From assembly GCA_015066005.1 (NCBI GenBank), contig SVPF01000019.1, positions 1-45,492 on the forward strand: a stretch of 45,492 nucleotides of DNA, given 5' to 3'. The DNA is from Oscillospiraceae bacterium (GTDB lineage Bacteria > Bacillota > Clostridia > Oscillospirales > Acutalibacteraceae). Below the pieces are notes generated by a model. That model worked only from the letters and a program-made list of their open reading frames with translations. It was not told the origin of the DNA and ran no database searches. This document shows, piece after piece, positions 3,841 to 36,581 of the stretch; within the stretch, counting starts at the first letter, position 1, and every line of letters begins with the position of its first letter. The position numbers were made by a program, and so were the translations under genes.

Positions 3841-4000
3841 AAATTATAGTTTGTCGGGATAATGAAGCACGAACCACATTAAGAATTCGTAGGGGCAGGC
3901 GTCCCCGACTGCCCGTTAAAACTCGACTTTATTTGCGGACAGTCCGGGAGGCCTGTCCCTACAAAATATCAATATAGTCTGTGCTATAAACCCCAATTTA
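3841..4000 (+). mobile_element. Intergenic element E2 with terminal inverted repeats, carrying a REP pair
   Basis: This 160 bp stretch fills the gap between the terminators of two convergent genes. The left end is AAATTATAGTTTGTCGGG. The right end, read on the minus strand, is AAATTGGGGTTTAT. These are the A-type and G-type ends seen in three other complete copies. The interior holds two GTAG-footed hairpins in inverted orientation (3889-3914 and 3937-3962). No coding potential was seen. Confidence 0.65.
3889..3962. repeat. Pair of inverted REP-like hairpins (BIME-like)
   Basis: The first unit on the plus strand is GTAG (3889-3892) followed by the stem GGGCAG (3893-3898) / CTGCCC (3909-3914). 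The second unit, on the minus strand, is GTAG (3959-3962) followed by the stem GGACAG / CTGTCC (3937-3942 with 3953-3958). A GTAG tetranucleotide at the 5' foot of a hairpin is the known recognition architecture of REP sequences moved by RAYT transposases. A RAYT relic lies at 20204. Confidence 0.7.
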
Positions 4001-4003
4001 TAA

Positions 4004-4037
4004 AAATAACCTCGTGGTTTTCCACGAGGTTATTTTA
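4004..4037 (-). terminator. Terminator of the giant surface-protein gene
   Basis: A fifteen-base stem AAAATAACCTCGTGG / CCACGAGGTTATTTT with a TTTT loop. It is followed on the minus strand by an A/T-rich run and lies just beyond the stop codon. Confidence 0.85.
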
Positions 4038-4043
4038 TTTTAA

Positions 4044-7000
4044 TTAAGCATTTTGCTTTTTGCGAAGTACAGCAAGAGCAAGCGCCAAGCCGCCGCTTAC
4101 AATCATAAGCATAAACCAAACTATAGCATTTGTAGAATCGTCAGTTTGCGAAATATGAGGTGTAAAGGTGTTTTCAAATACAGCCTTATTAACCTCGCCT
4201 TCAGCATTGCTGTAGATTATTTCAACCTCGAACAAGCCTTTGCCGCCATCCTTTACATTAACGGTTACGGTGTATACGGTTGCATCGTAGGTAATGCCAT
4301 TAGCGTTTTCGCTTAATTCCTTAATGGTGTAAACATAAGTGCCGGCCTCAGTAATGTTAAGCTTTGAAAATACTACCTTACCGTTCTTATCGTTCTTAAC
4401 TTTTTCAATAAGCTTTCCATCCTTGTCGTAAAGCTCGAAGGTAAAGTCATTACCATTAAGCTCAGCGCCGTTAAGAAGCTTTTCTGCTTCAATCGTAATA
4501 TCGGTCGGGTCAACAGTATACGCGTTATTGAATACAATAACGTCTTCAAACTTTCCGTTTACTACCTTGCCGTCAACCTTAACCTCGGCTAAAAGCTGAC
4601 CTTCGCCATTATCGGTAACGATAATTTCAACCTGATACTTGTGCTTGTCGGTAGTAATACCCTTGCCGTCAAGTTCGTCTTCAACAATTACGAAATAGTA
4701 ATTGCCAACCTTATTAAAGGTCATTTCACCAAATGTAATTGTACCCGTTGCGGCATCAATCTTTACCAGCTTAAAGTTATCGTTTAAAACCTTGAGCTGT
4801 GCAAAGTTAGGACCTGCTTCATAAAGGTCAAACTTAAATTCACCGTCAATAAGGTCGCGTCCCGAAAGCTTCTTAGTTGCCTTAAGGGTTACCTTAACAT
4901 CCTTTGCGGTGTATACGTTTTCAAATACAACCTTTGAAGCAATATCAGCAATTGCGGTTTCAGCATCGTCAACATAAAGCTTATAATCGTAATAACCGTC
5001 TAAGTCAGCATCTTCAGATACAACAATTTTAATTGCATAAACCTTTGTTGAATAGGTCACGCCACCCAAATTACCCTTGACTTCCTTAACGGTGTAATTA
5101 TAGGTGCCTTTAGCATCAAACTTAAGTGCATCAAATATTACCATTCCGTTAGCGTTATTCTTTTTGGTGTCGATAAGCGTGCCTTCTTTGTAAAGCTCAA
5201 AGGTGAATTCGCCGTTTTTAATATCTCTGCCGTCAAGTTCCTTTTTAGCCGAAATTATAATTTCAGCATCGTCAGGAGTGTAAACGTTATTAAATTCAGC
5301 CTTTTCCACAGTGTTGCCGCCCAAAGCATAAGCAACAGTCTTTGTGAAATAACCCTTACCGTCTTTGTCTTCAATCTTAACAGTTACGGTATATTCCTTT
5401 GTATCATAGGTAATATATTTGGAATTACCCTTGATTTCTTTAACGGTATAGGTATAAGTGCCTGCCTTGGTATAGGTGATTTTATCAAACGCAACCTTAC
5501 CGTCAGCGCCATTCTTGGCGGTGGCAATCTGTACACCGTTTTCATAAAGAGCAAATGTAAATTCATTAGCAGTTAAATTTTTACCGCTTAAGGTCTTGAA
5601 GGCTTCGAGTGTTACATCAATCGGTTCAACGGTATATTTATTGTTAAATACAATCGCATCTTCAATATTGCCTGTAACAGTTTTTCCGTCAACCTTAACC
5701 TCAGCCACAAGATTACCTTCGCCGTTATCGGTAACAATTACTTCAACCTCATATCTATGAGTATCTACCGTAATACCTTCGCCGTTAACTTCATCTTCCA
5801 AAATAACGAATCTGTAAGTGCCGACAGCACCAAAGGTTTGTGTAGCAAAGGTTACAATACCTGTAGATGCATCCTTCTTGAAAGCGGGTATATTATCATC
5901 AATCAGCTTATCGAGTGTGAAATCAGACTTTGCGCTGTAAAGGTCAAACTTAAATTCGCCGTTTACAAGGTCACGACCTGTTAGCTTCTTAGTAGCCTTA
6001 AAGGTTACACTTGCTTCTTCGGTAGCATATACATTTACAAATTTAATACTATTTTTAATGTTTGTTGTCTTAACATTGTCAACAAAAACTTCATAATCAA
6101 GTACGCCATCATTGTTAGCATCATCGCTTACAACAATTTTAACTGCGTAAACCTTTGTATCATAATCGATGCCGCCTAAATTACCCTTCTTTTCCTTTAC
6201 GGTGTAATTATAGATTCCAATTCTATCAAAGGTTAACTTTTCAAACGCAAAATCACCGTTTGCCGCGTTAGTAACGTCATCCTTTAAGATGTTACCCTCA
6301 TAAAGCTCAAAGGTAAATTCATTTGCTTTAAGGTCACGTCCGTCTAACGTCTTATTACCCTCAATCAAAACCTCGACAGCGGCAGGCTTATAAACATTTT
6401 CAAAGCTAAGACTTACACCCTCATTCGTGGTGTTATCGTATTCAACCAAAGCAGTAACGGTACCGTCAAGATTATCTATAATTTTAATGGTTATAGCATA
6501 AGCTGTGGGATCATAAGTCATACCCAAAAGCTTATCCTCGGGTACTATTTCCTTAATAACAAAGTCATATTCCTTACCAACAACTGTTGCAGGGAATGAA
6601 AGGTCAATATTGGTTTTACCGTTTGCATCAGTAGGCTGTGAAGTTACAATAGGCTCGGTGCCATCAACGGTAAACAAGCCGAAGATATAGCCTTCCTTAC
6701 CCTTTTGGCTGCCGACCTTATCACTAACGGTTTTATCAATAGTAACGATAAGCTCGTCAGAGCCGGTGGGCGCATAGGTATTTGTAAAGTCAACATCTAC
6801 AGTATAAATATTATTAATATGGAGTACAGTTGCAGGTGCATTGGCATTTACAACAGATACCTCAAGCTTACCGTCCATTGTTGCGTCGGTAACAACAACA
6901 CTGAAATAACGAATAACTTCATCATAGGTAATACCGCCAAGCTTATTTTGAGGTATAACCTCACGAACGCGGAACCAATAGGTACCAACCTTATTAAATT

Positions 7001-10000
7001 CAAAATTCTGAAGGTCTGCATCATTTGCAAAATCAAACCTATAATCCTTAGTAGCACTGTTAAAGCTTACTTTGCGCGAATTGCCAACTGCTTTCCATGC
7101 AGTGCCGTCCTGAACTTCAAGCGCAAATTCAAATGCATCTCCCGCCATCCAATCACGACCGGCAAGGGTTTTGGTACCGCTTACAACAAGTGAAGGCTTA
7201 ACAGCAGCTGGAGTATAATCGTTAATAAAGTGTGCAGTAGCAACAACGGTATTAACTGCCGTAACAGTCACAAGGTTTTGCTGTGGCGCAAAGCCAACAG
7301 GGAGATTTATTTCGTTTACAATGTAATCCCCTTCAGCAAGGTTTGACAATGTATGCGACTGACCTGCCTTAATTTTAAAGGTCTGACGGGCAGCATAATT
7401 ACCAACGGGATATACTTCAAATTCAAATTCGTGGTCATTGTTATAAGGAATGCCACTATCATGCTTAACTTCCTTTGAAACAACAATTGTACCATCGTTT
7501 ACAACAAGGGTATTTTCAAATTCAACCTCAGTAAGCTTGTCGGCAACAATAGTAGTATTCATATCGTTAACTGCCAACGGTAAAGCCGAACCGTTAACGG
7601 TAATTTTGCTCACTTTATAATTGCCGTTAATTTCTTCCTTAATAGCAATTACTGTACCGGGGTCAATGCCAATCACATAAACCGACTCGTTGGCTTTAAT
7701 CTTAACAACAGCCTTTGCTCCGCTAAAAGTAGGCACTATTTCATTAAGAACGCCGTTTACATCCTCGTGGTAGAAGGTTGCTTTGGTTAAGTCAAAGCCA
7801 TTGCTTTCAAGCTCGAAGGTGAAATAATCATTTGTGCCGAAAAGTGTGTCATCAACAGTTTTGGTAAGCTTGATACCCTGCGGGATATCCATAGAATAAC
7901 GTCCGTTATTGCCCAAAATCGAGCCAATATAAAATGTATTATCAGCAAGGTTTTCATCAATTACGGGATAACGCACATACTGTAAACTTGCTGTGGTGTT
8001 TTCAGACTTGGGCAAATTATACGGCTCAAGCACACGGTGAACCGCACCTGCGGGAATATCCCACGAATTATCGCTGTTACGAAATTCTTCGGTTAAAGCA
8101 CCGATAGTTAAATCAGACATTTCTTCATAATACCAAACGATGTCGGCATTTTCTTTATCGTCTGTATATGTGCCATTACCTTGAATAACAGCATACTTAC
8201 GGAAATAGGTGTTACCGTCGCTTGCAGTAGGCATAGTCGTATTTTTATACAACTGATAATTCGGATTACTTACCGTTCCTGTGTTAATATAAACCGGTGT
8301 ATCCTCTGCGTAATAATATCGTTCATTCTGAACAGAAGGTTCAAACAATACAATAGTATCTTCGGTCTTACTGGGATTTTCATGAGTTAAGCTGTCATCA
8401 TTCCACCAGTTTGTATAGAAATAATATTTACCGTCATCCGAAATACCGTCGTTATTATCATCAATAATATGGGCTTCCTTATCCTTTACAATACTGCTTA
8501 CATTAACGGGTGTAATATCATCATTCATACCAACTTCAAAGATAAGTCGAATAGGTTCAGCCGCTTTGTAATCTATCTGAACATTTTCAGCTTCCTCAAG
8601 AGTTTCACCGTCTAAAGAAATATCGTAACTAACAATTGGAATAAGCGATGCGGGAACGCGCCAAATCACCGAAACATTACCGTCAGAAATGCGGGTATGA
8701 ACCTGTGTAGAAATATACATAAGGTCAGTTGAAGTGTATTCGCCGGTAATGGCGCCCAACATACCGTAAGACTTATTAATATAAGAAGCCTTAACGCCAT
8801 TAATAACGGGTACATCTTCTTCGGTATGACCCTCATGCCAGTGGCCCATAAAGTTGCCGTTTTCATCAGCATACCAACCGATATAGTTTGACCAACCGCC
8901 ATTCCAAGAACGAAGCTGATAGGTATTGTAAGCGCTATTAATAAGATCTCGTGCAACAACAACATCACTAATACCTATACGTTCCTTAACAGACCACACA
9001 AGATTATTACCAAGGTCGCTGTAGCTTCCATCGGGATTAAAGAACACACTGTCATCTTCGGTAAAGTTTTGAGCAAGGTATTCTCCCGTAAAGAACTGAT
9101 TACCAAGCATTATACCCTTAATGTCCTTAACGTCCATATAGTGACCGATATCGTCAATAAACTCGACAAAACCGTCATGGTCGTGAATTCCGCTTGGAAC
9201 AAGTGTAGGATAATAAAGCGACTGAATAATAATTTGTTTAACAATTTCATCAAATGCCTTTATAAGTCCTTCTGCATTTGTTGCGGGGAAGAATTTTTCA
9301 ACATAATCAAGCTGCTTTATATCAGAAATTTCAGCAATCTTTTTAACCGATGTATAGTTGCCGTTTCCGCCAAGACTTACGAAAAGGTTTGAATCGTTAG
9401 TTGTATCAAGATAATCTTCCCATAGATGATCGGTACTGTTGTGTGCCGAAGGATTAAGAGGCGCACTGTTAAGTGAACTACCCGAGCCCCCAAGACCCAA
9501 GGTATAGAACAGCGGCTCTGCACCCTCATAATGCTCGTCAACCTTGTATTTAGCGTAGGCAGCGGTAAGCTGTGAAACAAAATCCATTGCAACAAAGGTT
9601 TCGTCACGCTGATTGGTTGTGCCGTTACCTATATTTGAGCCACGTAAGCCGGTCTGAGCAGCACTGTTGTTTTGTGCGGCAAAGTTATTAGTACCATAGG
9701 TAACGCGACCGTCAGACATAACAACAAAAATAGGTGTACGGGCGGTACCTGCCTGATGTTCACCGTCAGGAATTACCGTTTCAGTTTGCTTTAAGAATTC
9801 ACTCATCGCAGTATAGATACCGCTCTGAAGATATGTTCCGCCTTCTACACTAACCCAATCATCATCCATTAAGTCTTTATCGCCGTTTCTAACACCGTTA
9901 ACAACCTGAATATAATTTTGGCCGTAGTTGTTAAGGAATTTACCGCTGTTAGTTCCGCTTGTAGGCGCGGTATAGCGGTCAAGCGGCAATAAAACTGTGC

Positions 10001-10520
10001 CGTTTGCAGTGTCAGAATATAATATAACACCTACGCGGTTGTGTTTATTGAGATCTAAAAGACGCGAAATGGCATTATTGGCGGAAGTCACAAGCTCATC
10101 AACATATCCACTTCGGCTCATTGATGCCGAAATATCCAGAACAAGCATTGTGTCAGTCGGGGTGTAAGAATAACCTACAATAGACTTATTGGAAGCCAGG
10201 GCCGACAATGCAACAAGAAAGTTATTATCCTTATCAAGCATTGAAAGGTCAAAATCATTACCTGCGGCATCCACTAAGCCATTAAACGCATTTGTGTTTT
10301 TAAAGACAGATTTATCTGTCCAAATTCGACCTGCCTGCGTGGTATTGTCAGCAGGGAATAACTGTTGCCACGAATTAAAGGTTGACGGGTCAACCACACG
10401 GGGATCATTACTGTCATCAGCAAAAATAGGTAAAAGCATTAAGGGAAGCGAAACCGCCAAAATGCAAACCGACAATATTACTGCCAATGCTTTTTTAGAA
10501 AGTTTTTTAAAGTTTTTCAT
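4044..10520 (-). CDS. Giant vWA-domain surface protein with FctA/SpaA-type pilin repeats
   Basis: A 2158-residue exported protein, probably an adhesin or pilus tip. It has a signal peptide (about 1-35, ending PIFADD). A von Willebrand A domain follows, with the MIDAS motif DISASMS at about 129-135. A long middle section (about 850-1370) has Cna-B/SpaA-like strands. Six consecutive pilin-isopeptide (FctA-like) domains of roughly 120 residues run from about 1377 to 2125, each with a K-L-x-G-R-D-type start and an E-F-x-F-x-L-Y core. They fall into a three-domain block repeated twice. The C-terminus has a hydrophobic segment and RKKQNA, like a sortase substrate, but the sorting motif reads ISQTDD instead of LPxTG. 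Start ATG 10518-10520 has AAAGGGTGG upstream. The TetR gene is 39 bases upstream on the same strand, which suggests co-transcription. Confidence 0.88.
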   Translation of the reverse strand: MKNFKKLSKKALAVILSVCILAVSLPLMLLPIFADDSNDPRVVDPSTFNSWQQLFPADNTTQAGRIWTDKSVFKNTNAFNGLVDAAGNDFDLSMLDKDNNFLVALSALASNKSIVGYSYTPTDTMLVLDISASMSRSGYVDELVTSANNAISRLLDLNKHNRVGVILYSDTANGTVLLPLDRYTAPTSGTNSGKFLNNYGQNYIQVVNGVRNGDKDLMDDDWVSVEGGTYLQSGIYTAMSEFLKQTETVIPDGEHQAGTARTPIFVVMSDGRVTYGTNNFAAQNNSAAQTGLRGSNIGNGTTNQRDETFVAMDFVSQLTAAYAKYKVDEHYEGAEPLFYTLGLGGSGSSLNSAPLNPSAHNSTDHLWEDYLDTTNDSNLFVSLGGNGNYTSVKKIAEISDIKQLDYVEKFFPATNAEGLIKAFDEIVKQIIIQSLYYPTLVPSGIHDHDGFVEFIDDIGHYMDVKDIKGIMLGNQFFTGEYLAQNFTEDDSVFFNPDGSYSDLGNNLVWSVKERIGISDVVVARDLINSAYNTYQLRSWNGGWSNYIGWYADENGNFMGHWHEGHTEEDVPVINGVKASYINKSYGMLGAITGEYTSTDLMYISTQVHTRISDGNVSVIWRVPASLIPIVSYDISLDGETLEEAENVQIDYKAAEPIRLIFEVGMNDDITPVNVSSIVKDKEAHIIDDNNDGISDDGKYYFYTNWWNDDSLTHENPSKTEDTIVLFEPSVQNERYYYAEDTPVYINTGTVSNPNYQLYKNTTMPTASDGNTYFRKYAVIQGNGTYTDDKENADIVWYYEEMSDLTIGALTEEFRNSDNSWDIPAGAVHRVLEPYNLPKSENTTASLQYVRYPVIDENLADNTFYIGSILGNNGRYSMDIPQGIKLTKTVDDTLFGTNDYFTFELESNGFDLTKATFYHEDVNGVLNEIVPTFSGAKAVVKIKANESVYVIGIDPGTVIAIKEEINGNYKVSKITVNGSALPLAVNDMNTTIVADKLTEVEFENTLVVNDGTIVVSKEVKHDSGIPYNNDHEFEFEVYPVGNYAARQTFKIKAGQSHTLSNLAEGDYIVNEINLPVGFAPQQNLVTVTAVNTVVATAHFINDYTPAAVKPSLVVSGTKTLAGRDWMAGDAFEFALEVQDGTAWKAVGNSRKVSFNSATKDYRFDFANDADLQNFEFNKVGTYWFRVREVIPQNKLGGITYDEVIRYFSVVVTDATMDGKLEVSVVNANAPATVLHINNIYTVDVDFTNTYAPTGSDELIVTIDKTVSDKVGSQKGKEGYIFGLFTVDGTEPIVTSQPTDANGKTNIDLSFPATVVGKEYDFVIKEIVPEDKLLGMTYDPTAYAITIKIIDNLDGTVTALVEYDNTTNEGVSLSFENVYKPAAVEVLIEGNKTLDGRDLKANEFTFELYEGNILKDDVTNAANGDFAFEKLTFDRIGIYNYTVKEKKGNLGGIDYDTKVYAVKIVVSDDANNDGVLDYEVFVDNVKTTNIKNSIKFVNVYATEEASVTFKATKKLTGRDLVNGEFKFDLYSAKSDFTLDKLIDDNIPAFKKDASTGIVTFATQTFGAVGTYRFVILEDEVNGEGITVDTHRYEVEVIVTDNGEGNLVAEVKVDGKTVTGNIEDAIVFNNKYTVEPIDVTLEAFKTLSGKNLTANEFTFALYENGVQIATAKNGADGKVAFDKITYTKAGTYTYTVKEIKGNSKYITYDTKEYTVTVKIEDKDGKGYFTKTVAYALGGNTVEKAEFNNVYTPDDAEIIISAKKELDGRDIKNGEFTFELYKEGTLIDTKKNNANGMVIFDALKFDAKGTYNYTVKEVKGNLGGVTYSTKVYAIKIVVSEDADLDGYYDYKLYVDDAETAIADIASKVVFENVYTAKDVKVTLKATKKLSGRDLIDGEFKFDLYEAGPNFAQLKVLNDNFKLVKIDAATGTITFGEMTFNKVGNYYFVIVEDELDGKGITTDKHKYQVEIIVTDNGEGQLLAEVKVDGKVVNGKFEDVIVFNNAYTVDPTDITIEAEKLLNGAELNGNDFTFELYDKDGKLIEKVKNDKNGKVVFSKLNITEAGTYVYTIKELSENANGITYDATVYTVTVNVKDGGKGLFEVEIIYSNAEGEVNKAVFENTFTPHISQTDDSTNAIVWFMLMIVSGGLALALAVLRKKQNA
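4160..6390 (-). repeat. Two copies of a three-domain (A-B-C) block, period about 1.11 kb
   Basis: Inside the surface-protein gene, domains starting near 6390, 6020 and 5630 recur in the same order near 5280, 4910 and 4510. Matching pairs share distinctive segments: NLGGIDYDTKVYAVKIVVS with NLGGVTYSTKVYAIKIVVS (A/A'), and GITVDTHRYEVEVIVTDNG with GITTDKHKYQVEIIVTDNG (B/B'). Pairs resemble each other more than neighbours within a block do. The pattern indicates duplication of a whole block, not of single domains. Confidence 0.8.
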
Positions 10521-10559
10521 TTTAATACCACCCTTTCGGTATATGAAGGATTATATAAT

Positions 10560-16258: not shown

Positions 16259-16286
16259 AAAGCGGTTCTTTTGAACCGCTTTTTTA
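16259..16286 (+). terminator. Terminator of the DivIVA-like gene
   Basis: Stem AAGCGGTTC / GAACCGCTT with a TTTT loop, followed by a T run. Confidence 0.9.
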
Positions 16287-16303: not shown

Positions 16304-16551
16304 AAATTATAGTTTATCGCTGCGCGATTAAATAATAAATAAGAAAGAATAAGAACTTGACCCTTTGACAAAATCAGAGATTTTGAAAGGGTGCCCCAAA
16401 ACCTTGCCACGCATAGCGTGTAAAAGAATAAAATCGGTGTCGGCTTTGCCGACGGATTTATATATTGTGCCGTAGGCACACATTTTTTATTATTTATTAT
16501 TTTTTCTTTATTCTTTTTTCTTTTGGGCGTTAGCCCGATAAACCCCAATTT
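16304..16551 (+). mobile_element. Intergenic element E3 with terminal inverted repeats
   Basis: 248 bp. The left end is AAATTATAGTTTATCGCTGC. The right end, read on the minus strand, is AAATTGGGGTTTATCGGGCT. Positions 16304-16488 match the window-start copy E1 in inverted orientation, except for an insert of about 70 bp at 16354-16424. The insert contains its own hairpin, CCCTTTGACAAAATC / GATTTTGAAAGGG. A second interior hairpin is GTCGGCTTTGCCGAC. The stretch between 16287 and the promoter at 16563 holds nothing else. Confidence 0.65.
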
Positions 16552-20203: not shown

Positions 20204-20667
20204 ATGGACTTACCCAAACGCAAACCAATAAGATTAAAAGATTATGATTACAGCACACCCGGTGCATACTTTATAACAATATGTGTTAAAGAACGTAAGG
20301 CAATATTATCAAATATAAACGTAGCCCGCAAGAAATTCATTTAACAAAATATGGTGAAATTGTAGAAAATGCAATAAAGAACATACCAAAACATTATTCC
20401 AACATATCCGTAGATAATTATGTAATAATGCCTGACCATATTCATTTATTATTGCAAATACACACAAATAAAAACGGGCGACCATTGGTCGCCCCTACGA
20501 TAAACAGGGTAATAAAACAAACTAAAGGGTATATTACTAAACAAATCGGTTCTTCCATTTGGCAAAAATCATTTAACGACCATATTATTAGAGGGCGAGA
20601 AGATTATAAAAGTATTTGGGAATATATTGAAAACAACCCATTAAAAAGCAAAGGACTTGAAGATTAA
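20204..20667 (+). pseudogene. REP-associated tyrosine transposase (RAYT), frameshifted
   Basis: A Y1/IS200-like transposase relic. The first frame (from ATG 20204) gives MDLPKRKPIRLKDYDYSTPG then AYFITICVKERKAILSNINV and stops at 20342. The normal sequence resumes in another frame near 20325 (PQEIHLTKYGEIVENAI). It continues through the catalytic-histidine motif MPDHIHLLLQ (20428 onward), GRPLVAPT and SIWQKSFNDHIIRGREDYKS to a stop at 20665. The break lies in GTAGCCCGCAAG, and some residues usual at that point appear to be missing, so deletion rather than sequencing error is likely. The part after 20428 alone lacks the N-terminal half. A GTAG-footed hairpin lies within the coding sequence. 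Confidence 0.85.
20476..20498 (-). repeat. REP-like hairpin inside the RAYT gene
   Basis: A perfect eight-base stem GGGCGACC / GGTCGCCC with an ATT loop (20476-20494), followed by CTAC (20495-20498), which is GTAG on the minus strand. It encodes the residues GRPLVAPT in the transposase. Foot and stem match the units at 3889 and 33334. Confidence 0.75.
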
Positions 20668-20721: not shown

Positions 20722-20738
20722 GAAATCACAATAAGTTA

Positions 20739-20840
20739 TTACTTATTTAAAGCTTCGTTAACTGCAACTGCGCAAGCAACAGTCATACCAACCATGGGGT
20801 TGTTACCTGCGCCGATAAGACCAACCATCAGGGCGTGAAT
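20739..20840 (-). pseudogene. 3' remnant of a second GGGtGRT-family gene
   Basis: On the minus strand this reads HALMVGLIGAGNNPMVGMTV then ACAVAVNEALNK and a stop (20739-20741). It matches the C-terminus of the intact gene at 22582 (HVEMMGLIGAGNNPMVGMTV). Upstream of the histidine the similarity ends, and a stop codon appears a few codons earlier. About 34 codons survive. Synonymous differences from the intact copy show it is not a recent perfect duplication. Confidence 0.8.
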
Positions 20841-22509: not shown

Positions 22510-22588
22510 ATGCTTTAGCATTTCATTCACAACGTGAATTTCATTTGCCGTAAGGCAAATTTAATTGCAAATAATCAAAGATTATTTG
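22510..22588. repeat. Row of four small hairpins before the terminator
   Basis: Four adjacent palindromes: ATGCTTTAGCAT (22510-22521), ATTCACAACGTGAAT (22525-22539), ATTTGCCGTAAGGCAAAT (22543-22560), and CAAATAATC / GATTATTTG with an AAA loop (22568-22588). The last overlaps the stop codon of the GGGtGRT gene. Confidence 0.7.
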
Positions 22589-23583
22589 TTAAGCGCTTCG
22601 TTAACTGCAACTGCACAAGCAACAGTCATACCAACCATGGGGTTGTTACCTGCACCGATAAGACCCATCATTTCAACGTGAGCAGGAACTGATGAAGAAC
22701 CTGCGAACTGCGCGTCAGAGTGCATACGACCCATTGTATCGGTCATACCGTAGGAAGCGGGGCCTGCAGCCATATTGTCGGGGTGTAAGGTACGGCCTGT
22801 ACCGCCGCCCGATGCAACTGAGAAGTACTTCTTGCCCTGTTCAATGCATTCCTTCTTATAAGTACCTGCAACAGGATGCTGGAAGCGAGTGGGGTTGGTG
22901 GAGTTACCGGTGATGGAAACGTCAACACCTTCCTTATGCATGATAGCAACGCCTTCACGAACGTCGTCAGCACCATAGCAACGAACCTTAGCGCGTTCGC
23001 CGTTTGAGTAAGCGGTTTCTTCAACGATAGTAAGTTCGCCTGTGTAATAGTCAAACTTAGTTTGAACATAGGTAAAGCCGTTGATACGTGAAATAATTTT
23101 AGCAGCGTCCTTACCAAGACCGTTAAGAACTACACGAAGGGGTTCCTTACGAGCCTTGTTTGCGCTTCTTGCAAGACCGATAGCGCCTTCAGCAGCAGCG
23201 AAGGATTCGTGGCCTGCGAGGAATGCGAAGCACTTGGTTTCTTCCCTTAAAAGCATTGCGCCGAGGTTACCGTGGCCAAGACCAACCTTACGGTCGTCAG
23301 CAACAGAGCCGGGAATGCAGAAGGACTGAAGACCAACACCGATTTTTTCAGCAGCTTCAGCAGCGGATTTAACTTCATCCTTAATAGCGATAGCGCAGCC
23401 TACAACGTAAGCCCAAGCAGCATTTTCAAAGCAGATAGGCTGAATGCCTTTAACGATGTTATAAGCGTCAACGCCTGCCTTGTCGCAAATTTCCTTTGCT
23501 TCTTCAATGGAAGAAATGCCATGCTTTGCGAGCTCAGCGTTGATTTGATTTATTCTTCTGTCATAAGATTCAAATAATGCCAT
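22582..23583 (-). CDS. GGGtGRT family protein (uncharacterised)
   Basis: A 333-residue cytoplasmic protein named for its motif, seen here as SVASGGGTGRTLHPDNMAAG (about 255-274). Other conserved-looking stretches are GVGLQSFCIPGSVADDRKVG, AFLAGHESFAAAEGAIGLAR and AHVEMMGLIGAGNNPMVGMT. No catalytic activity is established for the family that I know of. The glycine-rich motifs suggest a nucleotide- or cofactor-binding fold, which is inference. ATG 23581-23583 has GGAGGAA eight bases upstream and follows the scaffold gene by 18 bases, so the two are co-transcribed. A decayed second copy lies 1.8 kb away. Confidence 0.85.
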   Translation of the reverse strand: MALFESYDRRINQINAELAKHGISSIEEAKEICDKAGVDAYNIVKGIQPICFENAAWAYVVGCAIAIKDEVKSAAEAAEKIGVGLQSFCIPGSVADDRKVGLGHGNLGAMLLREETKCFAFLAGHESFAAAEGAIGLARSANKARKEPLRVVLNGLGKDAAKIISRINGFTYVQTKFDYYTGELTIVEETAYSNGERAKVRCYGADDVREGVAIMHKEGVDVSITGNSTNPTRFQHPVAGTYKKECIEQGKKYFSVASGGGTGRTLHPDNMAAGPASYGMTDTMGRMHSDAQFAGSSSVPAHVEMMGLIGAGNNPMVGMTVACAVAVNEALNK

Positions 23584-29717: not shown

Positions 29718-30995
29718 TTATTTTACTTTTTTCTTTTTAATTACTATAACAACCACTACAACGCCTGCAACCAAAACAACTGCGCCTGCAACAATTGCAA
29801 TTATTGCCCATGGCTCTAAACCGGAGCCCTGACCGTCATTTTCGCCGTACTGTGTACCGATATTGTTCGGGTCAAAAGGCTTGCCGCTGTTTTGGGGCTT
29901 GTTGTCAATACCGCCCTGTGCGCCGTCGTTAACGGTGCCGCTGTTATTGCTTGTGGTGTTACCGCCCTGATTGCCTGTTGATGTATTTGTAGAAGTGTTT
30001 GTCGATGTGTTTGTAGAAGTATTAGTAGAGGTATTACCACCCTGATTGCCGGGTGTTACACCGCCCTTGGCTTCACCCGAAGGTGTGGTCATATTTTTGG
30101 GTGCAGACTTACCAAATAAAAGCCAAGCATATTCGGGATAGTCTACAAACACGTTACGGTTACCTGTAATAGACTGAACAGCGTCGTTACGACCCATTTC
30201 CCAAGTATCAACAGGGTCTTCCTGCATCCATTTAAGTAAAACGGTAAGGTTTTCCATTACACCGCTTGTGCCCCACATTTTTGCACCGTTACCCCAACGA
30301 ACATACCCGTAAAGCACAATGCGGGCACAGTCGCCTTTTACATTGTCAGCAGGTTCAAAATAACTACCGCTTTCGCCATACGCAGTATTGCCGCGTGAGC
30401 CGTTTTCGCTCTTTAACGTAGGACGAAGCATCATCATATCAGCACTGTCACCTTGACTTCTGCCCGAGGTAAGACATTTACTGTCAGGCCAGCAGTGTTC
30501 ACGGTTCCAAGTGGCACCGCTATCCCAAACAGCGTTAAAGAAATTGCTTGAATAGAATGACATGATTTTAGAAGTGTCATTCGCGGCGCAGTCGGTATAC
30601 TTATACATATCACGGGTTTGCTGATAGTCGTGGTCAAAATTGTTTTGCATAAGTGCCTGTAATGCACTATATAAAGCACTGCTGGGTGAGCTAGTTTGAC
30701 CTGATTCACCCTTTAATTTTGAAAGGCTGTCAAAGGTGTTGCTGCCCTTGTAATATGCAGTTGCATATTTCGAAAGGAAAACACAATCCTCGCCACGAAC
30801 ACCCCAGTTAATAACACCATTGGAAACAGCATAGGTTCTCGAACCACTGTATTCGGTAAAGCTTTTATACACAACATCGCTTGCTTTGGTGTAACCGGTA
30901 TCAGAGGGGGCCGCACCAACATTTGTAAGGCACATTGCAACCAATAAAATTACTGCAACTGCCAATGCTAATGATCGTTTTGCAAATTGTTTCAT
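29718..30995 (-). CDS. Surface-anchored endonuclease I family nuclease
   Basis: A 425-residue exported nuclease. The signal peptide is about 1-29. The endonuclease I domain (about 30-305) shows WNREHCWPDS, the expected His/metal motif, and DYPEYAWLLFG at its end. The second usual motif (D-L-H-H-L-R-P-T in relatives) reads DMMMLRPT. After the domain come a low-complexity linker with repeated Thr-Ser-Thr-Asn units, a membrane helix (WAIIAIVAGAVVLVAGVVVV) and KKKKVK. It probably degrades extracellular DNA or RNA at the cell surface. ATG 30993-30995 is chosen because GAGGT lies eight bases before it; an upstream ATG is at 31010. Confidence 0.85.
   Translation of the reverse strand: MKQFAKRSLALAVAVILLVAMCLTNVGAAPSDTGYTKASDVVYKSFTEYSGSRTYAVSNGVINWGVRGEDCVFLSKYATAYYKGSNTFDSLSKLKGESGQTSSPSSALYSALQALMQNNFDHDYQQTRDMYKYTDCAANDTSKIMSFYSSNFFNAVWDSGATWNREHCWPDSKCLTSGRSQGDSADMMMLRPTLKSENGSRGNTAYGESGSYFEPADNVKGDCARIVLYGYVRWGNGAKMWGTSGVMENLTVLLKWMQEDPVDTWEMGRNDAVQSITGNRNVFVDYPEYAWLLFGKSAPKNMTTPSGEAKGGVTPGNQGGNTSTNTSTNTSTNTSTNTSTGNQGGNTTSNNSGTVNDGAQGGIDNKPQNSGKPFDPNNIGTQYGENDGQGSGLEPWAIIAIVAGAVVLVAGVVVVVIVIKKKKVK
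29955..30040 (-). repeat. Tandem 12-base repeat in the nuclease linker
   Basis: Five near-perfect 12-base units encode a (Thr-Ser-Thr-Asn)n linker, flanked on each side by GNQGGNT. The unit count could vary between strains. Confidence 0.75.
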
Positions 30996-31085
30996 CACAT
31001 AATACCTCATTTTATATTATTGCCTATACATTATAGCACACATTTTGTAAAAATAAAGCACTTTTTAATTTTTTTTGCAGTTTTA

Positions 31086-31114
31086 TTGCATTAGGTGAAT
31101 TTTAGTGATAAAAT
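31086..31114 (+). promoter_or_regulatory. Promoter of the ABC exporter gene
   Basis: TTGCAT (31086-31091), 17 bases, TAAAAT (31109-31114). Because this overlaps an in-frame GTG at 31105, the real start codon must be further downstream. Confidence 0.5.
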
Positions 31115-31140
31115 ATAGCAAGAAACGGAAGGTGCAGATA

Positions 31141-32889
31141 ATGAAAAAAAGCTCATCAGCAAGGCTTATAAAACGCTTTTTGCCATATTATAAAAAATAT
31201 GTTCCCACCCTTATATTTGACCTGTTTTGCGCATCCCTTACCACCGTGTGCGAAATTGTGCTGCCGCTGATTGTTCGGTACATAACAAACACCGCTTTAA
31301 CCGATGTTGCAAAGCTTACAATTGGCAGTATTTTAACGGTTGGCGGCATTTATTTAGTGCTAAAGCTTATTGATGCGGCGGCAAATTATTATATGGCATC
31401 GGTCGGTCACATAATGGGTACAAAAATTGAAACCGATATGCGCACCGATATGTTTGACCATTTGCAAAAGCTTTCCTTTAAGTATTACGATAATACCAAG
31501 GTCGGAAGTTTAATGTCACGAATGACAAGCGACCTTTTTGATATTACCGAATTTGCCCACCACTGCCCTGAGGAATTACTTATTGCAGGCATTAAAATTA
31601 TTTGCTGCTTTGTAATTTTAAGCCGAATGAACATTTGGCTTACACTTATAATTTTTACGGCAATACCCCCAATGGTTTTGGTGCTAAGCTTTTTTAACAA
31701 AAAAATGCGTTCGGGCTTCCGTGAATCCAGAAAACAGGTGGCCGAGCTTAATTCCCAAATTGAAGACAGCCTTTTAGGTATTCGTGTTGTAAAATCCTTT
31801 ACGGGTGAAGACATTGAAAAAGAAAAGTTTTCAAAAGGCAACAAGGGTTATCTTGGCATAAAGTCAAAGGTTTATCACTATATGGCGGCTTTCCACTGTA
31901 CCACCAGTGTTTTAGACGGTATTCTTTACATATTAGCCGTTGTTGCGGGCGCTATTTTCATTATATACGACGGTTTAAACCCTGCCGATTTAATTGTTTT
32001 CTTAATGTATATAACCACCCTTTTAAATTCTATTCGCAAAATCGTTCAGTTTGCCGAGCAGTTCCAGCGCGGTATGACAGGCATTGAACGCTTTGGTGAA
32101 ATAATGGAAACTGACCCCGATATTAAGGACAGTAAGGATGCTGTTGAGCTTCAAAACGTTAAGGGTGATATTGAATTTAAAAACGTTACCTTTAAATACA
32201 CCGAAGAAACCGACGACGTGCTTTCTCACCTTAATTTAAAAATTCCCGCAGGAAAAAATATTGCTTTGGTTGGTGAATCGGGCGGCGGCAAAACCACAAT
32301 TTGCTCGCTTATTCCCCGTTTTTATGAAATTTTGGACGGCTCACTTACGGTTGACGGCATTGACATTCGCGATATTAAAATGCGTTCTTTACGTTCGCAA
32401 ATCGGCGTTGTTCAGCAGGATGTATATCTGTTTTCGGGCAGTGTGCGTGAAAACATTGAATATGGAAGACCGGGCGCCAGTGAAGAGGAAATTATTGCCG
32501 CCGCCAAAATGGCAGGTGCTGACGAATTCATTAACACCTTACCCGACGGGTACGACACCTACGTTGGTGAGCGTGGCGTTAAGCTTTCGGGCGGACAAAA
32601 GCAGCGCATAAGTATTGCCCGTGTGTTCCTTAAAAACCCACCGATTTTGCTTTTAGACGAAGCCACAAGCGCACTTGATAATGAAAGTGAACGCCTTGTG
32701 CAAAAGTCACTCGAAAGGCTGTCACAGGGGCGAACAACCCTTACCATTGCCCACCGCCTTACCACCATTAAAAATGCCGATAATATTATTGTTTTCGGCA
32801 AAAGCGGCATTATGGAAACAGGCACCCATGACGAGCTTTTAGCCAAGGGCGGAACCTATGCCGACCTTTATAACACATCATTTAAATAA
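31141..32889 (+). CDS. ABC exporter, fused permease and ATPase
   Basis: A 582-residue type IV ABC half-transporter, expected to work as a homodimer or with a partner outside the window. The N-terminal six-helix membrane domain spans about 15-300 (with RMTSDLFDITEFAHHCPEEL as the coupling region). The ATPase domain has Walker A GESGGGKTT, Q-loop VQQDVYLFSGSV, signature LSGGQKQRISIAR, Walker B ILLLDEATSALD and H-loop IAHRLTT. Export of lipid, peptide or drug is possible; the sequence does not decide. ATG 31141 has GGAAGGTG upstream; the GTG at 31105 lies inside the promoter. Confidence 0.93.
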   Translation: MKKSSSARLIKRFLPYYKKYVPTLIFDLFCASLTTVCEIVLPLIVRYITNTALTDVAKLTIGSILTVGGIYLVLKLIDAAANYYMASVGHIMGTKIETDMRTDMFDHLQKLSFKYYDNTKVGSLMSRMTSDLFDITEFAHHCPEELLIAGIKIICCFVILSRMNIWLTLIIFTAIPPMVLVLSFFNKKMRSGFRESRKQVAELNSQIEDSLLGIRVVKSFTGEDIEKEKFSKGNKGYLGIKSKVYHYMAAFHCTTSVLDGILYILAVVAGAIFIIYDGLNPADLIVFLMYITTLLNSIRKIVQFAEQFQRGMTGIERFGEIMETDPDIKDSKDAVELQNVKGDIEFKNVTFKYTEETDDVLSHLNLKIPAGKNIALVGESGGGKTTICSLIPRFYEILDGSLTVDGIDIRDIKMRSLRSQIGVVQQDVYLFSGSVRENIEYGRPGASEEEIIAAAKMAGADEFINTLPDGYDTYVGERGVKLSGGQKQRISIARVFLKNPPILLLDEATSALDNESERLVQKSLERLSQGRTTLTIAHRLTTIKNADNIIVFGKSGIMETGTHDELLAKGGTYADLYNTSFK

Positions 32890-32899
32890 TTAACAAAAT

Positions 32900-32946
32900 A
32901 ACACTCCAAGCATATTATGGTAAAAATACGCTTGGAGTGTTTTTTT
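32900..32946 (+). terminator. Terminator of the ABC gene that contains the next gene's ribosome site
   Basis: Stem ACACTCCAAGC (32901-32911) / GCTTGGAGTGT (32930-32940) followed by a T run to 32946. The GGAGTG in the 3' arm is the only ribosome-site-like sequence before ATG 32947. Confidence 0.8.
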
Positions 32947-33225
32947 ATGGATGATAACTTCCCTATTCCTATTTTCAGTGATGATGATTTAACCGTATAC
33001 GAAAACTATATAAATTCATTAAATAAGCCAAACAATAATACCTTTTGCGAATTATTAAAGGGTCATATTGGCAAAAGTATTAAAATTTACATGGTTTTCG
33101 GCAACCAATTAACCGCCCGACAGGGCAAGCTTTTAAACGTTTTTGACGACTATATTATTTTGTGCAAAAACCGTGAAAAATTTGCCATTAAGCTAAGTGA
33201 AATTAAGTTTATATCGGTGATGTAA
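32947..33225 (+). CDS. Small protein with a possible Sm-like barrel
   Basis: A 92-residue protein. The second half (KGHIGKSIKIYMVFGNQLTA then RQGKLLNVFDDYIILCKNRE, ending IKLSEIKFISVM) has the strand pattern G-x-V-x-hydrophobic ... G-x-L ... D-Y-I-I-L ... I-x-L-x-x-I-x-F-I of Sm-like/GerQ-like small barrels. No family is certain. Its ATG comes directly after a terminator T run, and the GGAG of the terminator stem serves as ribosome site at nine bases. Expression would need read-through of the hairpin from the ABC gene; no promoter of its own was seen. Confidence 0.65.
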   Translation: MDDNFPIPIFSDDDLTVYENYINSLNKPNNNTFCELLKGHIGKSIKIYMVFGNQLTARQGKLLNVFDDYIILCKNREKFAIKLSEIKFISVM

Positions 33226-33444
33226 ATTGGGGTTTAGCGCTTAGGCGAGGTAATAAGTAAGAGGTAACAGTGAATAGGTTCGGTGTCGCTCCGCGACAGA
33301 TGTAAATCGTATGTATTTAGATTGATATAACTCGTAGGGGCGATTCACGAATCGCCCGCCTATGCATAGCTGTAATTCACGGACAATTCGTGAATTGTCC
33401 CTACGATGTGCCACCAATTCAACCGAGCGATAAACTATAATTTG
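33224..33444 (-). mobile_element. Intergenic element E4 with terminal inverted repeats, carrying a REP pair
   Basis: 221 bp. The left end is AAATTGGGGTTTAGCG. The right end, on the minus strand, is AAATTATAGTTTATCGCTCG. So it has the same two end types as E2 and E3, in reverse orientation. The interior carries two inverted GTAG-footed hairpins (33334-33357 and 33381-33404). No gene is supported here. Confidence 0.65.
33334..33404. repeat. Pair of inverted REP-like hairpins (BIME-like)
   Basis: The plus unit is GTAG (33334-33337) then GGGCGATT / AATCGCCC around CACG (33338-33357). The minus unit is GTAG (33401-33404) then GGACAATT / AATTGTCC around CGTG (33381-33400). The feet and first stem bases match the units in E2, in and after the RAYT gene. 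Confidence 0.75.
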
Positions 33445-33457
33445 AACATCCAAATCA

Positions 33458-33487
33458 AAAAGGTAGGGCCAACGAGGTCCTACCTTT
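33458..33487 (-). terminator. Terminator of the flavoprotein gene pair
   Basis: Stem AAGGTAGGACC / GGCCCTACCTT followed on the minus strand by TTTTTGATTT. Confidence 0.8.
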
Positions 33488-33490
33488 CAT

Positions 33491-35050
33491 TTACATTAAA
33501 TCCTTAACAACCTGTTCGGCAACACGCATACCGTCAACTGCAGCAGACATTATACCTCCCGCATAGCCTGCCCCTTCACCGCAAGGGTAAAGACCCACAA
33601 GGGATAGCGAATGATAATTTTCGTCCCTTAAAATTCTTACAGGTGACGAGCTTCTGGTTTCGGGGGCCGTAAGAATGGAATTCTTATCAGCAAAGCCCTT
33701 GATTTTATTATCAAGAAGGGGTAACGCTTCCTTTAAGCTATCGGTTATAAAGGATGGAAAAATACCCGTAAAATCAGCAAAAGCATACTTCGGCTTTACA
33801 GTTGGTTTAACCTTTGTGATTTCGGCCTTTTCACCGTAAACAAGCTGACCCACAGTGGTTATAGGCACGGCGCCGTTCGCAATATTGAATGCCGCTTTTT
33901 CAACCCTTTGCTGTAAATAACAGCCTGCCATTATATCATCATTTCCAAGGTCTTCGGGGTTTACATTTACAAGCAATGCCGAATTTGCATTTTCACCGTC
34001 ACGGCGGCTTTGGCTCATACCGTTTACAGCTATACCGCCCTCTTCTGAGGAGGAGTTAATAACCTCACCGCCCGGGCACATACAAAAGGTGTAAACACCC
34101 CTGCCGCTATCAAGGTGTACCGCCATTTTATAGTCAGCCGCCGACAATGCAGGGTGATTATAAAATTTGCCGTACAAAGCGCGGTTTATATCTTCTTGCC
34201 TGTGTTCAATTCTAACACCCATTGAAAAGGGCTTTTGCGCCATTTGAACACCCATTTCCTTTAAGGTGGAAAAAACGTCCCTTGCAGAATGACCGGTTGC
34301 TAAAATAACCTTGTTGCAAGTTATTTCCCTGTCCCCTGCCGTAACTGACACAATTTCGCCGTTTTGGGTGTTGATTCTTTGAAGCTTTGTATTAAAACAA
34401 ACCTCGCCGCCGAGTGAAATAATTTCACGGCGGATATTTTTAACAACATTAATTAAAACGTCGGTGCCAATATGCGGCTTTGCATCAATTAAAATTTTAT
34501 CCCCTGCGCCAAACTGCGCAAAGGCTTTTAGCACCGCACGGCAACGGACATCCTTAATACCTGTGTTTAATTTACCATCCGAAAAGGTACCTGCACCGCC
34601 TTCACCAAACTGAACGTTACTGTCATTTTTTAAAGGTCCACCTTTAAAAAATGCCTCAACATCAGCTTTTCTGGTGTCGGCATCCTGCCCGCGCTCAAGC
34701 ACAATGGGTTTAAGCCCTGCCCTTGCTAAAACAAGGGCGGCAAACATACCCGCAGGCCCAAAGCCTACAACAACAGGGCGATGCTTTATTTCGCCCGTAA
34801 AAACAGGGTTTACATATTCCTTTTCATTAAAAACACTTGCATTTTTGTTCTTTCTCATAAGCGCTTGCTCATTGTTACATTCAACAAGCACCGAACAGCA
34901 AAAATGCACATTATCCTTTTTTCTCGCATCGACCGACCTTTTGTAAAGCCGTGCCGATTTTAAGGGGGTTTTTAAATACCCTTCCATAACCGATTTTAAA
35001 TTTGAAAAATCGGTTTCAAGTGGTAAGTTTACATTATTTATTAATAGCAT
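33491..35050 (-). CDS. COG2509-type FAD-dependent dehydrogenase
   Basis: A 519-residue flavoprotein. A short N-terminal ferredoxin-like or DUF region (about 1-85) is followed by the FAD-binding dinucleotide motif VVVGFGPAGMFAALVLARAG. Then come ERGQDADTR, the characteristic VQFGEGGAGTFSDGKLNTG, and a C-terminal GLYPCGEGAGYAGGIMSAAV closing the FAD site. The family is widespread and its substrate is unknown. Its ATG overlaps the stop of the upstream flavoprotein gene by one base (TAATG), so the two are translated together. Confidence 0.88.
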   Translation of the reverse strand: MLLINNVNLPLETDFSNLKSVMEGYLKTPLKSARLYKRSVDARKKDNVHFCCSVLVECNNEQALMRKNKNASVFNEKEYVNPVFTGEIKHRPVVVGFGPAGMFAALVLARAGLKPIVLERGQDADTRKADVEAFFKGGPLKNDSNVQFGEGGAGTFSDGKLNTGIKDVRCRAVLKAFAQFGAGDKILIDAKPHIGTDVLINVVKNIRREIISLGGEVCFNTKLQRINTQNGEIVSVTAGDREITCNKVILATGHSARDVFSTLKEMGVQMAQKPFSMGVRIEHRQEDINRALYGKFYNHPALSAADYKMAVHLDSGRGVYTFCMCPGGEVINSSSEEGGIAVNGMSQSRRDGENANSALLVNVNPEDLGNDDIMAGCYLQQRVEKAAFNIANGAVPITTVGQLVYGEKAEITKVKPTVKPKYAFADFTGIFPSFITDSLKEALPLLDNKIKGFADKNSILTAPETRSSSPVRILRDENYHSLSLVGLYPCGEGAGYAGGIMSAAVDGMRVAEQVVKDLM

Positions 35051-36276
35051 TATTTATTCCTTAAAATATGGTCGCAGGCGCAAAAAGCACTGCTCCACGC
35101 CCATTGTAAATTAAAGCCGCCGCAGTCACCGTCAATATCTAAAATTTCACCCACAGCGTAAAAATTTTCATAATTTTTGCTTTGCATTGTAGTATTATCA
35201 AATTCGGTTGTAGAAATACCGCCCGCCGACACCTGCGAATTCACAAAGCCCGTGGTGTCAAGCACCTTAAAATCGAACGATTTTATTGTTTTAACAATGC
35301 GGTCAATATCGCTGACAGTAAGTGTTCCCGCCTTTTCCAAAAGCTTTAAGCCGCAATACTTTAAAATAACCTGACCGACACGCTTTTGAAGCATACCTGT
35401 AAAGAATTCCTCAAGCGGTCGCTGTGACAAATTTTCGGCTCTTTTAATAATTTGTGACTTCAAATCATTAAAGGGAATTTGGGGCATTATATCAAGCGAT
35501 AAAACCGTTTGATTTTTATTTCGCGGTACCTCGCGTGAAAGCTGCATAATCGGCGGTCCCGATAGGCCGTAATCACAAAACAGCACCTCACCGAATTCTT
35601 GCCTTATAACCCTTTCGCCCGCCTTTAATGCGGCATTAGCATCAACCTTAATGCCCTTTAACTGCTTAACAACATCGTTTTCGGTTTTAAGCTGAACAAT
35701 TGCAGGAGTAACATTAACTGCTTTAAAGCCTGCTTTTTTAAGCAGCTCAAACATACTGCCGTCACTTCCAACCTTATAACCGCCCGAATAAAGCCCTGTT
35801 GCAACAATAACCGTGTCACACACAAAGCTTAATTTATCAGCCCAAACGCGATATTTGCCTTTTAGGGTTTGAATGTTTGTAACCTTTGTGTCGGTATGAA
35901 TTAAAACACCGCTTTCTTCAGCCGCAAAACGAAGACAGTCCACCACAGACCCCGCTTGTAAGGATGCAGGAAAAGCCTTTTCCCCCTCAAACACGAAGGG
36001 TACGCCAATGCTTTCAAAAAAATTGGCTGTAAAATTTAAATCATACTTATTAAGGGCATATTCCGCAAAGGAAACATCACTACCGTGATAACGGGAAAGA
36101 TCAAGGTTTTTATTTGTTATATTGCACCTGCCGTTACCTGTAAGCAAAAGCTTTTTGCCCACGCGTGGAAGCGCCTCTAAAATGCGGATATTAAGGCGCG
36201 GATTTTGTTTTTTAAGGTACACGGCCGACAAAAGCCCTGCCGCACCGCCACCTATTATAATAATATCGGTAGTCAT
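35050..36276 (-). CDS. BaiN/HI0933-type NAD(P)/FAD-dependent oxidoreductase
   Basis: A 408-residue flavoprotein with the FAD motif IIIIGGGAAGLLSAVYLKKQ, the family signature GKKLLLTGNGRCNITN, and a C-terminal AVGEILDIDGDCGGFNLQWA then SSAFCACDHI. The family includes the bile-acid-dehydroxylation-associated reductase BaiN, but most members have no known substrate, so the bile link should not be assumed. Transcription starts from the promoter at 36298-36326. It is the first gene of a two-gene operon with the COG2509 flavoprotein. Confidence 0.9.
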   Translation of the reverse strand: MTTDIIIIGGGAAGLLSAVYLKKQNPRLNIRILEALPRVGKKLLLTGNGRCNITNKNLDLSRYHGSDVSFAEYALNKYDLNFTANFFESIGVPFVFEGEKAFPASLQAGSVVDCLRFAAEESGVLIHTDTKVTNIQTLKGKYRVWADKLSFVCDTVIVATGLYSGGYKVGSDGSMFELLKKAGFKAVNVTPAIVQLKTENDVVKQLKGIKVDANAALKAGERVIRQEFGEVLFCDYGLSGPPIMQLSREVPRNKNQTVLSLDIMPQIPFNDLKSQIIKRAENLSQRPLEEFFTGMLQKRVGQVILKYCGLKLLEKAGTLTVSDIDRIVKTIKSFDFKVLDTTGFVNSQVSAGGISTTEFDNTTMQSKNYENFYAVGEILDIDGDCGGFNLQWAWSSAFCACDHILRNK

Positions 36277-36297
36277 AAAATACCCCCTAACTTTTTT

Positions 36298-36326
36298 ATT
36301 TTATCATATATGTGAAAATATTGCAA
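36298..36326 (-). promoter_or_regulatory. Promoter of the flavoprotein pair
   Basis: On the minus strand TTGCAA (36321-36326), 17 bases, TAAAAT (36298-36303). Element E5 begins eight bases upstream. Confidence 0.6.
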
Positions 36327-36333
36327 TTAAAAC

Positions 36334-36581
36334 AAATTGGGAGTTTATCGCTCAGTTGGATGGATATATCATTGGCTCCCTCTGACGAGGGAGCTGGCAC
36401 GAGGAACTCGTGACTGAGGGAGAGAAAGTGCTTATTTACAGTGTTTTCGGTCTCTCCCTCCGTCTTTTTGCTTCGCAAAAATCCACCTCCCTCATCAGAT
36501 GGAGGCAAGGGTTTGTACAATAATTCCGAATTACGCATTACGAATTACGCATTGGGCGTTAGCCCGATAAACTATAATTTA
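36334..36581 (-). mobile_element. Intergenic element E5 with terminal inverted repeats
   Basis: 248 bp. The left end is AAATTGGGAGTTTATCGC. The right end, on the minus strand, is AAATTATAGTTTATCGGGCT. The interior differs from the other copies: it has CTCCCT / AGGGAG (36376-36393), GCACGAG / CTCGTG, and a second CTCCCTC-type hairpin further right. The inner right end (GGGCGTTAGCCC) matches that of E3. An 80-codon minus-strand frame here shows no coding character. Confidence 0.65.

What the first reader, a model, noticed from the sequence alone, without database searches (positions are those of the whole stretch)
3841..36581. Family of intergenic elements with one A-type and one G-type terminus
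Four complete copies (3841-4000, 16304-16551, 33224-33444, 36334-36581) and a truncated one (1-114) share short terminal inverted repeats. Every complete copy has one end AAATTATAGTTT and one end AAATTGGGGTTT (AAATTGGGAGTTT in E5), so the ends are asymmetric and the element has a direction. Two copies run one way and two the other. Interiors differ: REP pairs, an unrelated CTCCCT hairpin set, or A/T-rich hairpins. All lie between genes, beside terminators or promoters. Constant ends with exchangeable interiors fit a MITE-like element or a landing platform, and I know of no name for it.
Basis: partly seen in the sequence, partly recalled or inferred. Interest (0 to 1): 0.75.

Follow-up and report, generated by a model that had tools for sequence, protein, structure and literature searches.

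The report
Terminator-side repeats with swappable middles
An uncultured gut bacterium carries a large family of short non-coding DNA elements that tend to sit just behind gene-ending signals, with one kind of end facing the signal and another kind facing away, while their middles are replaced from species to species; it looks like a new variety of small bacterial mobile repeat.

Summary
All four complete window copies have one A end (AAATTATAGTTT) and one G end (AAATTGGGGTTT; one with an extra base). Genome-wide there are 78 exact A and 50 exact G ends. Of 36 exact facing pairs 35 are A/G, 1 A/A, 0 G/G. Allowing two edits, 63 of 68 testable A ends have a G partner inward, against 1 of 77 outward. 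Polarity follows the flank: an intrinsic terminator reads into the A end at 39 of 62 copies and into the G end at 14 of 62. Relatives show empty sites, and no target duplication was detected (116 elements). At 11 addresses occupied in two or three species (13 comparisons), position and polarity agree but the interiors do not correspond; best interior matches lie at other addresses. Two relatives carry A/A elements, so the asymmetry is clade-specific. I read it as a non-autonomous, terminator-associated element recognised by its ends, with replaceable cargo. No enzyme was found, and the standard MITE definition fails on target duplication. Cassette exchange on a retained platform is not excluded.

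The parts
1..113 (-). Element E1, A end at 102-113; A/T-rich interior; the other end is lost at the contig start
3841..3999 (+). Element E2 (159 bp, written A to G): A end 3841-3852, G end 3988-3999; REP-like palindrome interior
3800..3828 (+). Intrinsic terminator reading into the A end of E2 (hairpin plus T-tract, by eye)
16304..16551 (+). Element E3 (248 bp): A end 16304-16315, G end 16540-16551; A/T-rich hairpin interior
16261..16286 (+). Intrinsic terminator reading into the A end of E3 (by eye)
33224..33443 (-). Element E4 (220 bp): G end 33224-33235, A end 33432-33443; REP-like pair interior; absent from the orthologous site in G044
33457..33484 (-). Intrinsic terminator reading into the A end of E4 (by eye)
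36334..36580 (-). Element E5 (247 bp): G end variant 36334-36346, A end 36569-36580; CTCCCT hairpin interior; absent from the orthologous site in G044
36591..36615 (-). Hairpin of the intrinsic terminator reading into the A end of E5 (by eye)

Best explanation
A family of short non-coding, non-autonomous mobile elements defined only by their ends. The ends form a 16-bp inverted repeat, AAATT-NNN-GTTTATCG, with NNN = ATA at the A end and usually GGG at the G end. An enzyme acting in trans, not identified here, recognises the ends and places the element, A end first, mostly a few bases past the T-tract of an intrinsic terminator and often directly 3' of TTC, without duplicating target bases. What lies between the ends is cargo: hairpin-rich repeats, some of which also occur without these ends. 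Cargo is replaced often while address and polarity stay, either because a new element takes the same target or by exchange inside the ends. Shown: pairing of ends, polarity towards terminators, empty sites, no detectable duplication, same address with different interiors. Inferred: the trans-acting enzyme, recognition of the ends alone, the direction of change, and the route of cargo replacement.
For: Unlike ends pair (35 of 36; 63 of 68 inward against 1 of 77 outward). Terminator into A end 39 of 62, into G end 14 of 62; A-only 34, G-only 9, sign test 1.7e-4, shuffles about 1. TTC directly before A 42 of 62. Eight elements have an orthologous empty site, 11 comparisons. No duplication of 2-10 bp at offsets 0-5 in 116 elements. 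Thirteen comparisons at 11 addresses: same point and polarity, no corresponding interior, best interior match elsewhere. Patchy: 9 of 70 genomes of the genus.
Against: No autonomous copy and no enzyme found. In three of the eight empty-site cases (C33:30865, C38:83269, G045:C82:15216) the filled allele has 10-33 further unmatched bases outside an end, so those boundaries are not clean; in three (E4, E5, C52:16319) the adjacent terminator hairpin differs as well. Only 5 of the 8 empty sites sit behind a recognisable terminator (by eye), and 23 of 62 copies have no detected terminator on the A side. Two relatives have A/A ends, so an A/G pair is not needed in general.
Confidence: 0.5

Rival explanations
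1. An ordinary MITE of a DDE insertion sequence whose target duplications have decayed; interiors are reshuffled by homologous recombination or gene conversion among the roughly 80 copies.
For: Inverted terminal repeats, small size, high copy number. Many interiors are 90-100% identical between addresses. A/A elements in G008 have perfect inverted ends.
Against: No duplication in 116 elements, including recent-looking copies. Exchanged interiors of different classes share little beyond the ends, short for RecA-type recombination (general knowledge).
Confidence: 0.22
2. A site-specific cassette-exchange platform: unlike ends stay at the address and a recombinase swaps the cassette between them.
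For: Same point and polarity with different interiors in 13 of 13 clean comparisons. Some interiors are inverted between the same ends. All five exact A ends of G044 in the C7 and C31 stretches fetched lie at addresses also occupied in the own genome, sharing at least one flank.
Against: No recombinase found. Re-insertion at a preferred target would look the same. End variants do not clearly travel with the address. A/A elements need no unlike pair.
Confidence: 0.2
3. A single-strand substrate folded into a hairpin, moved by a HUH (IS200/IS605-like) or integron-like enzyme.
For: Fixed 5' target-like TTC and no duplication. The ends pair around the 3-nt mismatch as an internal loop in two of four predicted DNA folds. 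All four complete copies fold better than shuffles.
Against: Arms of one element pair no better than permuted arms in 84 elements (3.333 against 3.329 of 4 at positions 13-16; 3.07 against 3.36 of 8 at positions 17-24). In the other two folds the ends are unpaired. G044, 98% complete, has no PF01797 match although two of its interiors are 99.2% identical.
Confidence: 0.1
4. A retroelement using the terminator like a group IIC intron.
For: Group IIC introns insert at intrinsic terminators (PMC4424553, passages); similar target and polarity here.
Against: No Rfam family matches the window at gathering thresholds. The ends lack the intron start GUGYG (motif recalled), and inverted terminal repeats are not expected (recalled).
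Confidence: 0.04

Closest known systems
Correia elements of Neisseria
   Same: Interspersed, short inverted repeats enclosing variable internal sequence (described in PMC3049150, passages).
   Different: Here the two ends differ, lie in a fixed polarity to terminators, and show no target duplication.
BOX elements of Streptococcus pneumoniae (boxA, variable boxB, boxC)
   Same: Unlike constant ends, variable middle, intergenic, structured (PMC3049150, passages).
   Different: Here the ends are an inverted repeat and interiors are different classes, not numbers of one unit.
MITEs
   Same: Short, non-coding, high copy number, inverted ends.
   Different: No target duplication; no autonomous partner seen.
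REP/BIME sequences
   Same: Several interiors are inverted pairs of REP-like palindromes.
   Different: Those are the cargo; the A/G ends are additional and also enclose unrelated interiors.
Group IIC introns
   Same: Directional insertion behind intrinsic terminators (PMC4424553, passages).
   Different: No intron RNA family matches.
Integron attC sites
   Same: Two stems separated by an unpaired asymmetric spacer with a variable tip, as anatomy (terms recalled; PMC2727003 seen only in a search listing).
   Different: Dispersed singly over the genome; arms show no co-selected pairing; integrase not searched.

Membership tests
MITE | Terminal inverted repeats, short, non-coding, multi-copy | tested here: met
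MITE | Target-site duplication | tested here: not met
   116 elements, k 2-10, offsets 0-5: no excess beyond isolated cases
MITE | Related autonomous insertion sequence with the same ends | tested here: inconclusive
   None in the loci fetched; assemblies are draft and contigs break in repeats
BOX-like composite repeat | Ordered unlike end modules with a variable number of one middle module | tested here: not met
   Unlike ends yes, but middles are different classes
IS200/IS605-derived element | Y1 transposase available in the genome | tested here: not met
   0 PF01797 matches in G044 (98% complete); 14 of the 16 genomes searched have a match
IS200/IS605-derived element | Insertion 3' of a short fixed target, no duplication | tested here: inconclusive
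   TTC before A 42 of 62; no duplication
Group II intron | Intron RNA domains | tested here: not met
   No Rfam match in the window at gathering threshold
Group IIC intron | Insertion behind intrinsic terminators in one direction | tested here: met
   39 of 62 A side, 14 of 62 G side
Integron attC | Imperfect palindrome whose two arms are kept complementary | tested here: not met
   Permutation test, 84 elements
Integron attC | IntI-type integrase | not tested

The most novel reading that the evidence does not exclude
Each address behind a terminator keeps a pair of unlike recombination ends for longer than it keeps any one interior, and an enzyme exchanges the cassette between them: a genome-wide set of about 80 standing cassette-exchange sites in which the ATA/GGG difference fixes polarity.
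Probability: 0.2. Interest if true: 0.85.

Novelty: new variant of a known kind. Interest (0 to 1): 0.55.

Why it matters
Small intergenic repeats are common, but how their middles diversify is rarely visible. Here related species hold the same addresses with the same ends and polarity and different interiors, so re-insertion against cassette exchange becomes testable with strain genomes. Inverted ends, polarity towards intrinsic terminators and no target duplication are a combination that none of the families I compared shows. The enzyme, if found, would be a terminator-directed insertion system.

Tried and rejected
Chance: rejected by exact counts, reversed controls and the outward control. 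Independent occurrence of the two ends: rejected.

Target duplication, including a palindromic AATT or a TTTAT direct-repeat model (ideas from reading flanks and two solo A ends, C52:4035 and C33:73911): most empty sites carry no such motif at the junction (C38:83269 has AATT nearby) and the systematic test is negative. The solo A end C33:73911 lies at a synteny break: in the other genomes where both flanks matched they lie on different contigs.

Folded-arm recognition: permutation test negative. Y1 transposase as the mover: none in G044. Viral contigs: 0 matches to TTCAAATTATAGTTTRTCG. Wider taxonomy: 2 of the other 299 genomes sampled in the family have a match, one each, with no G-type partner in the locus. 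Terminators moving along with the element: apart from one tandem duplication (C4:10436/14562, 400 nt) and one 33-nt shared flank (C25:5618/7518), plus one hairpin recognised by eye at C53:65665, flanks do not repeat, so not general.

Literature: a search for the end sequences gave 8 papers, which by title and start of abstract are not about bacterial repeats. Searches listed no paper whose title or abstract start describes this family; this covers only the held PubMed Central library, and listings were capped.

Limits and dropped rows. The genomes compared are draft assemblies; the own one is 88% complete. Loci from other genomes are those around known A ends plus syntenic stretches, so shared-site counts are no random sample. 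My element table (124 rows) holds at least two mispaired copies: C52:4035 (a false 680-bp copy, the maximum) and G045:C61:3900-4376 (its G end lies in coding sequence, shown). I dropped the G045:C61 comparison, so the 14 comparisons at 12 addresses become 13 at 11; the 13 include three pairs from one address in three species. Nine further rows flagged filled had no partner in the table; one search compared them: four have no interior match, four a match of 35-72 nt, and the ninth is the mispaired copy. One search flagged 12 rows empty; one (C4:50847 against G017) is a 32-nt remnant with an A end and is not counted. In one search, 66 rows include two with an incomplete flank; one search drops those and two duplicates. 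Orthology is weakest for C33:92694/G017:C29:5865 (71% on one flank). A 300-nt flank 100% identical between G044 and G045 may be transfer or binning error. The A ends were found by searching for them, so their conservation is partly by selection.
Full report
What is there. The window is contig C14 of a 1.97-Mb, 53-contig, 88%-complete genome. Read together, the ends are one inverted repeat, AAATT-NNN-GTTTATCG, with ATA at the A end and GGG at the G end: in 84 elements in strict register the A end has ATA in 81 and the G end GGG in 69 (partly by selection, since I searched for the A end).

Is it more than chance? The own genome has 78 exact A ends (2 for the reversed control) and 50 exact G ends (2 for the control). 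Pairing inward-facing neighbours within 800 bp gives 36 exact pairs: 35 A/G, 1 A/A, 0 G/G; random pairing predicts 48% unlike pairs, P about 1e-10. Allowing two edits in the partner, 63 of the 68 A ends with at least 650 nt available have a G-type partner within 700 nt inward, against 1 of 77 outward. Of the ends without a partner many are cut by contig ends inside a repeated interior.

Polarity. The A end is preceded by T, T, C at 69, 69 and 59 of 78 copies, and by TTC exactly at 42 of 62 deduplicated complete copies. A simple detector finds a hairpin plus T-tract reading into the A end at 39 of these 62 and into the G end at 14; 34 are A-only and 9 G-only (sign test 1.7e-4), and shuffles give about one. 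In the window all four complete copies run gene, terminator, A end (by eye). Polarity therefore follows the flank. The interior need not: at the G044 site that shares one flank with E3, a related A/T-rich interior lies inverted between the same ends. Over four genomes the class I marker lies 7 times one way and 4 the other, class III 8 and 5, a short A/T module 20 and 8; the other six markers were seen in one orientation only.

Distribution. AAATTATAGTTTRTCG is in 9 of 70 genomes of the genus, 1 to 69 copies each. Of 300 genomes sampled over the family, only the own genome and two with one match each have the A-end 16-mer. End types vary: A with CCCC in the own group and some others; A with AAACTCC(C)AATTT in CAMHPQ, RUG14881 and RUG342; A/A in the copies of G008 and G029 that show a partner, one G008 A end out of those listed being preceded by TTC. 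One G008 copy is a 43-bp perfect palindrome. G008 has 15 A ends and one G-type match, no more than the control. So the asymmetry belongs to part of the family.

Empty and filled sites. Aligned blocks of at least 500 nt between the own genome and G044 range from 70 to 96% identity, 10 of 21 at 90% or more. E4 and E5 are both absent there. In all, 8 elements have an orthologous site without the element, 11 comparisons. At 5 of the 8 the site lies just behind a terminator T-tract (by eye). At three (E4, E5, C52:16319) the neighbouring hairpin differs between species; at G045:C82:15216 it is kept and at G017:C29:30119 it is similar. At E5 the G044 hairpin is the odd one, since G017 and G045 resemble the own one (by eye). 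In three cases (C33:30865, C38:83269, G045:C82:15216) the filled allele has 10-33 more unmatched bases beyond an end, so the boundary is not clean. No duplication of 2-10 bp stands out at any offset tested in 116 elements.

Interior exchange. Thirteen comparisons at 11 addresses have an element in both species at the same point and with the same polarity (one further comparison dropped). Interiors do not correspond: 9 show no match and 4 a match of 24-60 nt. For both partners of each the best interior match was an element at another address, for example 100% over 216 of 216 nt for C32:18186 and 99.2% over 131 of 138 nt for G044:C19:2524. Eight more filled rows whose partner is not in my table show no match (4) or 35-72 nt (4). 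Ten element-free stretches between the own genome and G044, mostly intergenic, all align, so drift alone is not the cause. All five exact A ends of G044 in its C7 and C31 stretches lie at addresses occupied in the own genome, sharing at least one flank. That favours inherited addresses, but a strongly preferred target could do it too.

Interiors. They are hairpin-rich: all four complete window copies fold better as DNA than 200 shuffles, z -3.1 to -6.9. Some are inverted REP-like palindromes. A module with GGTGTCGCTTTGCGAC follows terminators in G037 and G066 at a site without A or G ends, so at least one interior module exists in its own right. Compound arrays occur: six own-genome places have a G-type end followed by AATTGAGCTCATCG, or a one-base variant, opening a second unit that begins with the same REP-like sequence.

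Mechanism. The data fit an element of which only the ends are recognised. A Y1 transposase is unlikely, as G044 has no PF01797 match while two of its interiors are 99.2% identical. A folded substrate is attractive because the ATA/CCC positions form an internal loop in two of four folds, but the ends are unpaired in the other two and arms are not co-selected for pairing. A DDE MITE lacks its duplication. Terminator targeting is known for group IIC introns (PMC4424553, passages), but no Rfam family matches the window.

Known relatives. BOX elements, and Correia elements described in the same paper (PMC3049150, passages), are nearest in anatomy. The prokaryotic MITE review PMC10969869 was searched for five terms only; the passages shown mention terminator-like SPRITE repeats and no family like this. 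I file this as a MITE-like composite repeat that fails the duplication criterion: a new variant of a known kind.

Noticed in passing
window 20353-20637 (+): Weak Y1 transposase match (PF01797, E 4.5e-6), RAYT-like in my reading; not beside any of the elements.
   Followed up: partly
window 20738-20828 and 22581-22671: A 91-nt direct repeat, 90% identical; the second copy covers the end of ORF 22582-23583, so the first may be a remnant of a duplicate.
   Followed up: no
window 4044-10520 (-): A 2158-aa ORF with many diverged internal repeats.
   Followed up: no
G000:C4:10618, C40:8005, C44:15715, C52:8602, C53:65651, C53:69527: A third kind of unit start, AATTGAGCTCATCG (one-base variant at C53:65651), seen directly after a G-type end at six places.
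   Followed up: partly
G000:C52:4035 and C33:73911: Solo A ends directly followed by flank-like sequence; G044 and G045 are filled at the site of C52:4035, and C33:73911 is a synteny break.
   Followed up: partly
G044:C10:78166-78286 and G045:C63:4375-4495: 300-nt A-side flank 100% identical and identical interior, but unrelated flank on the other side: recent transfer with its border at the element, or a binning error.
   Followed up: no
G000:C4:10436 and C4:14562: Two elements with an identical 400-nt A-side flank, a tandem duplication.
   Followed up: no
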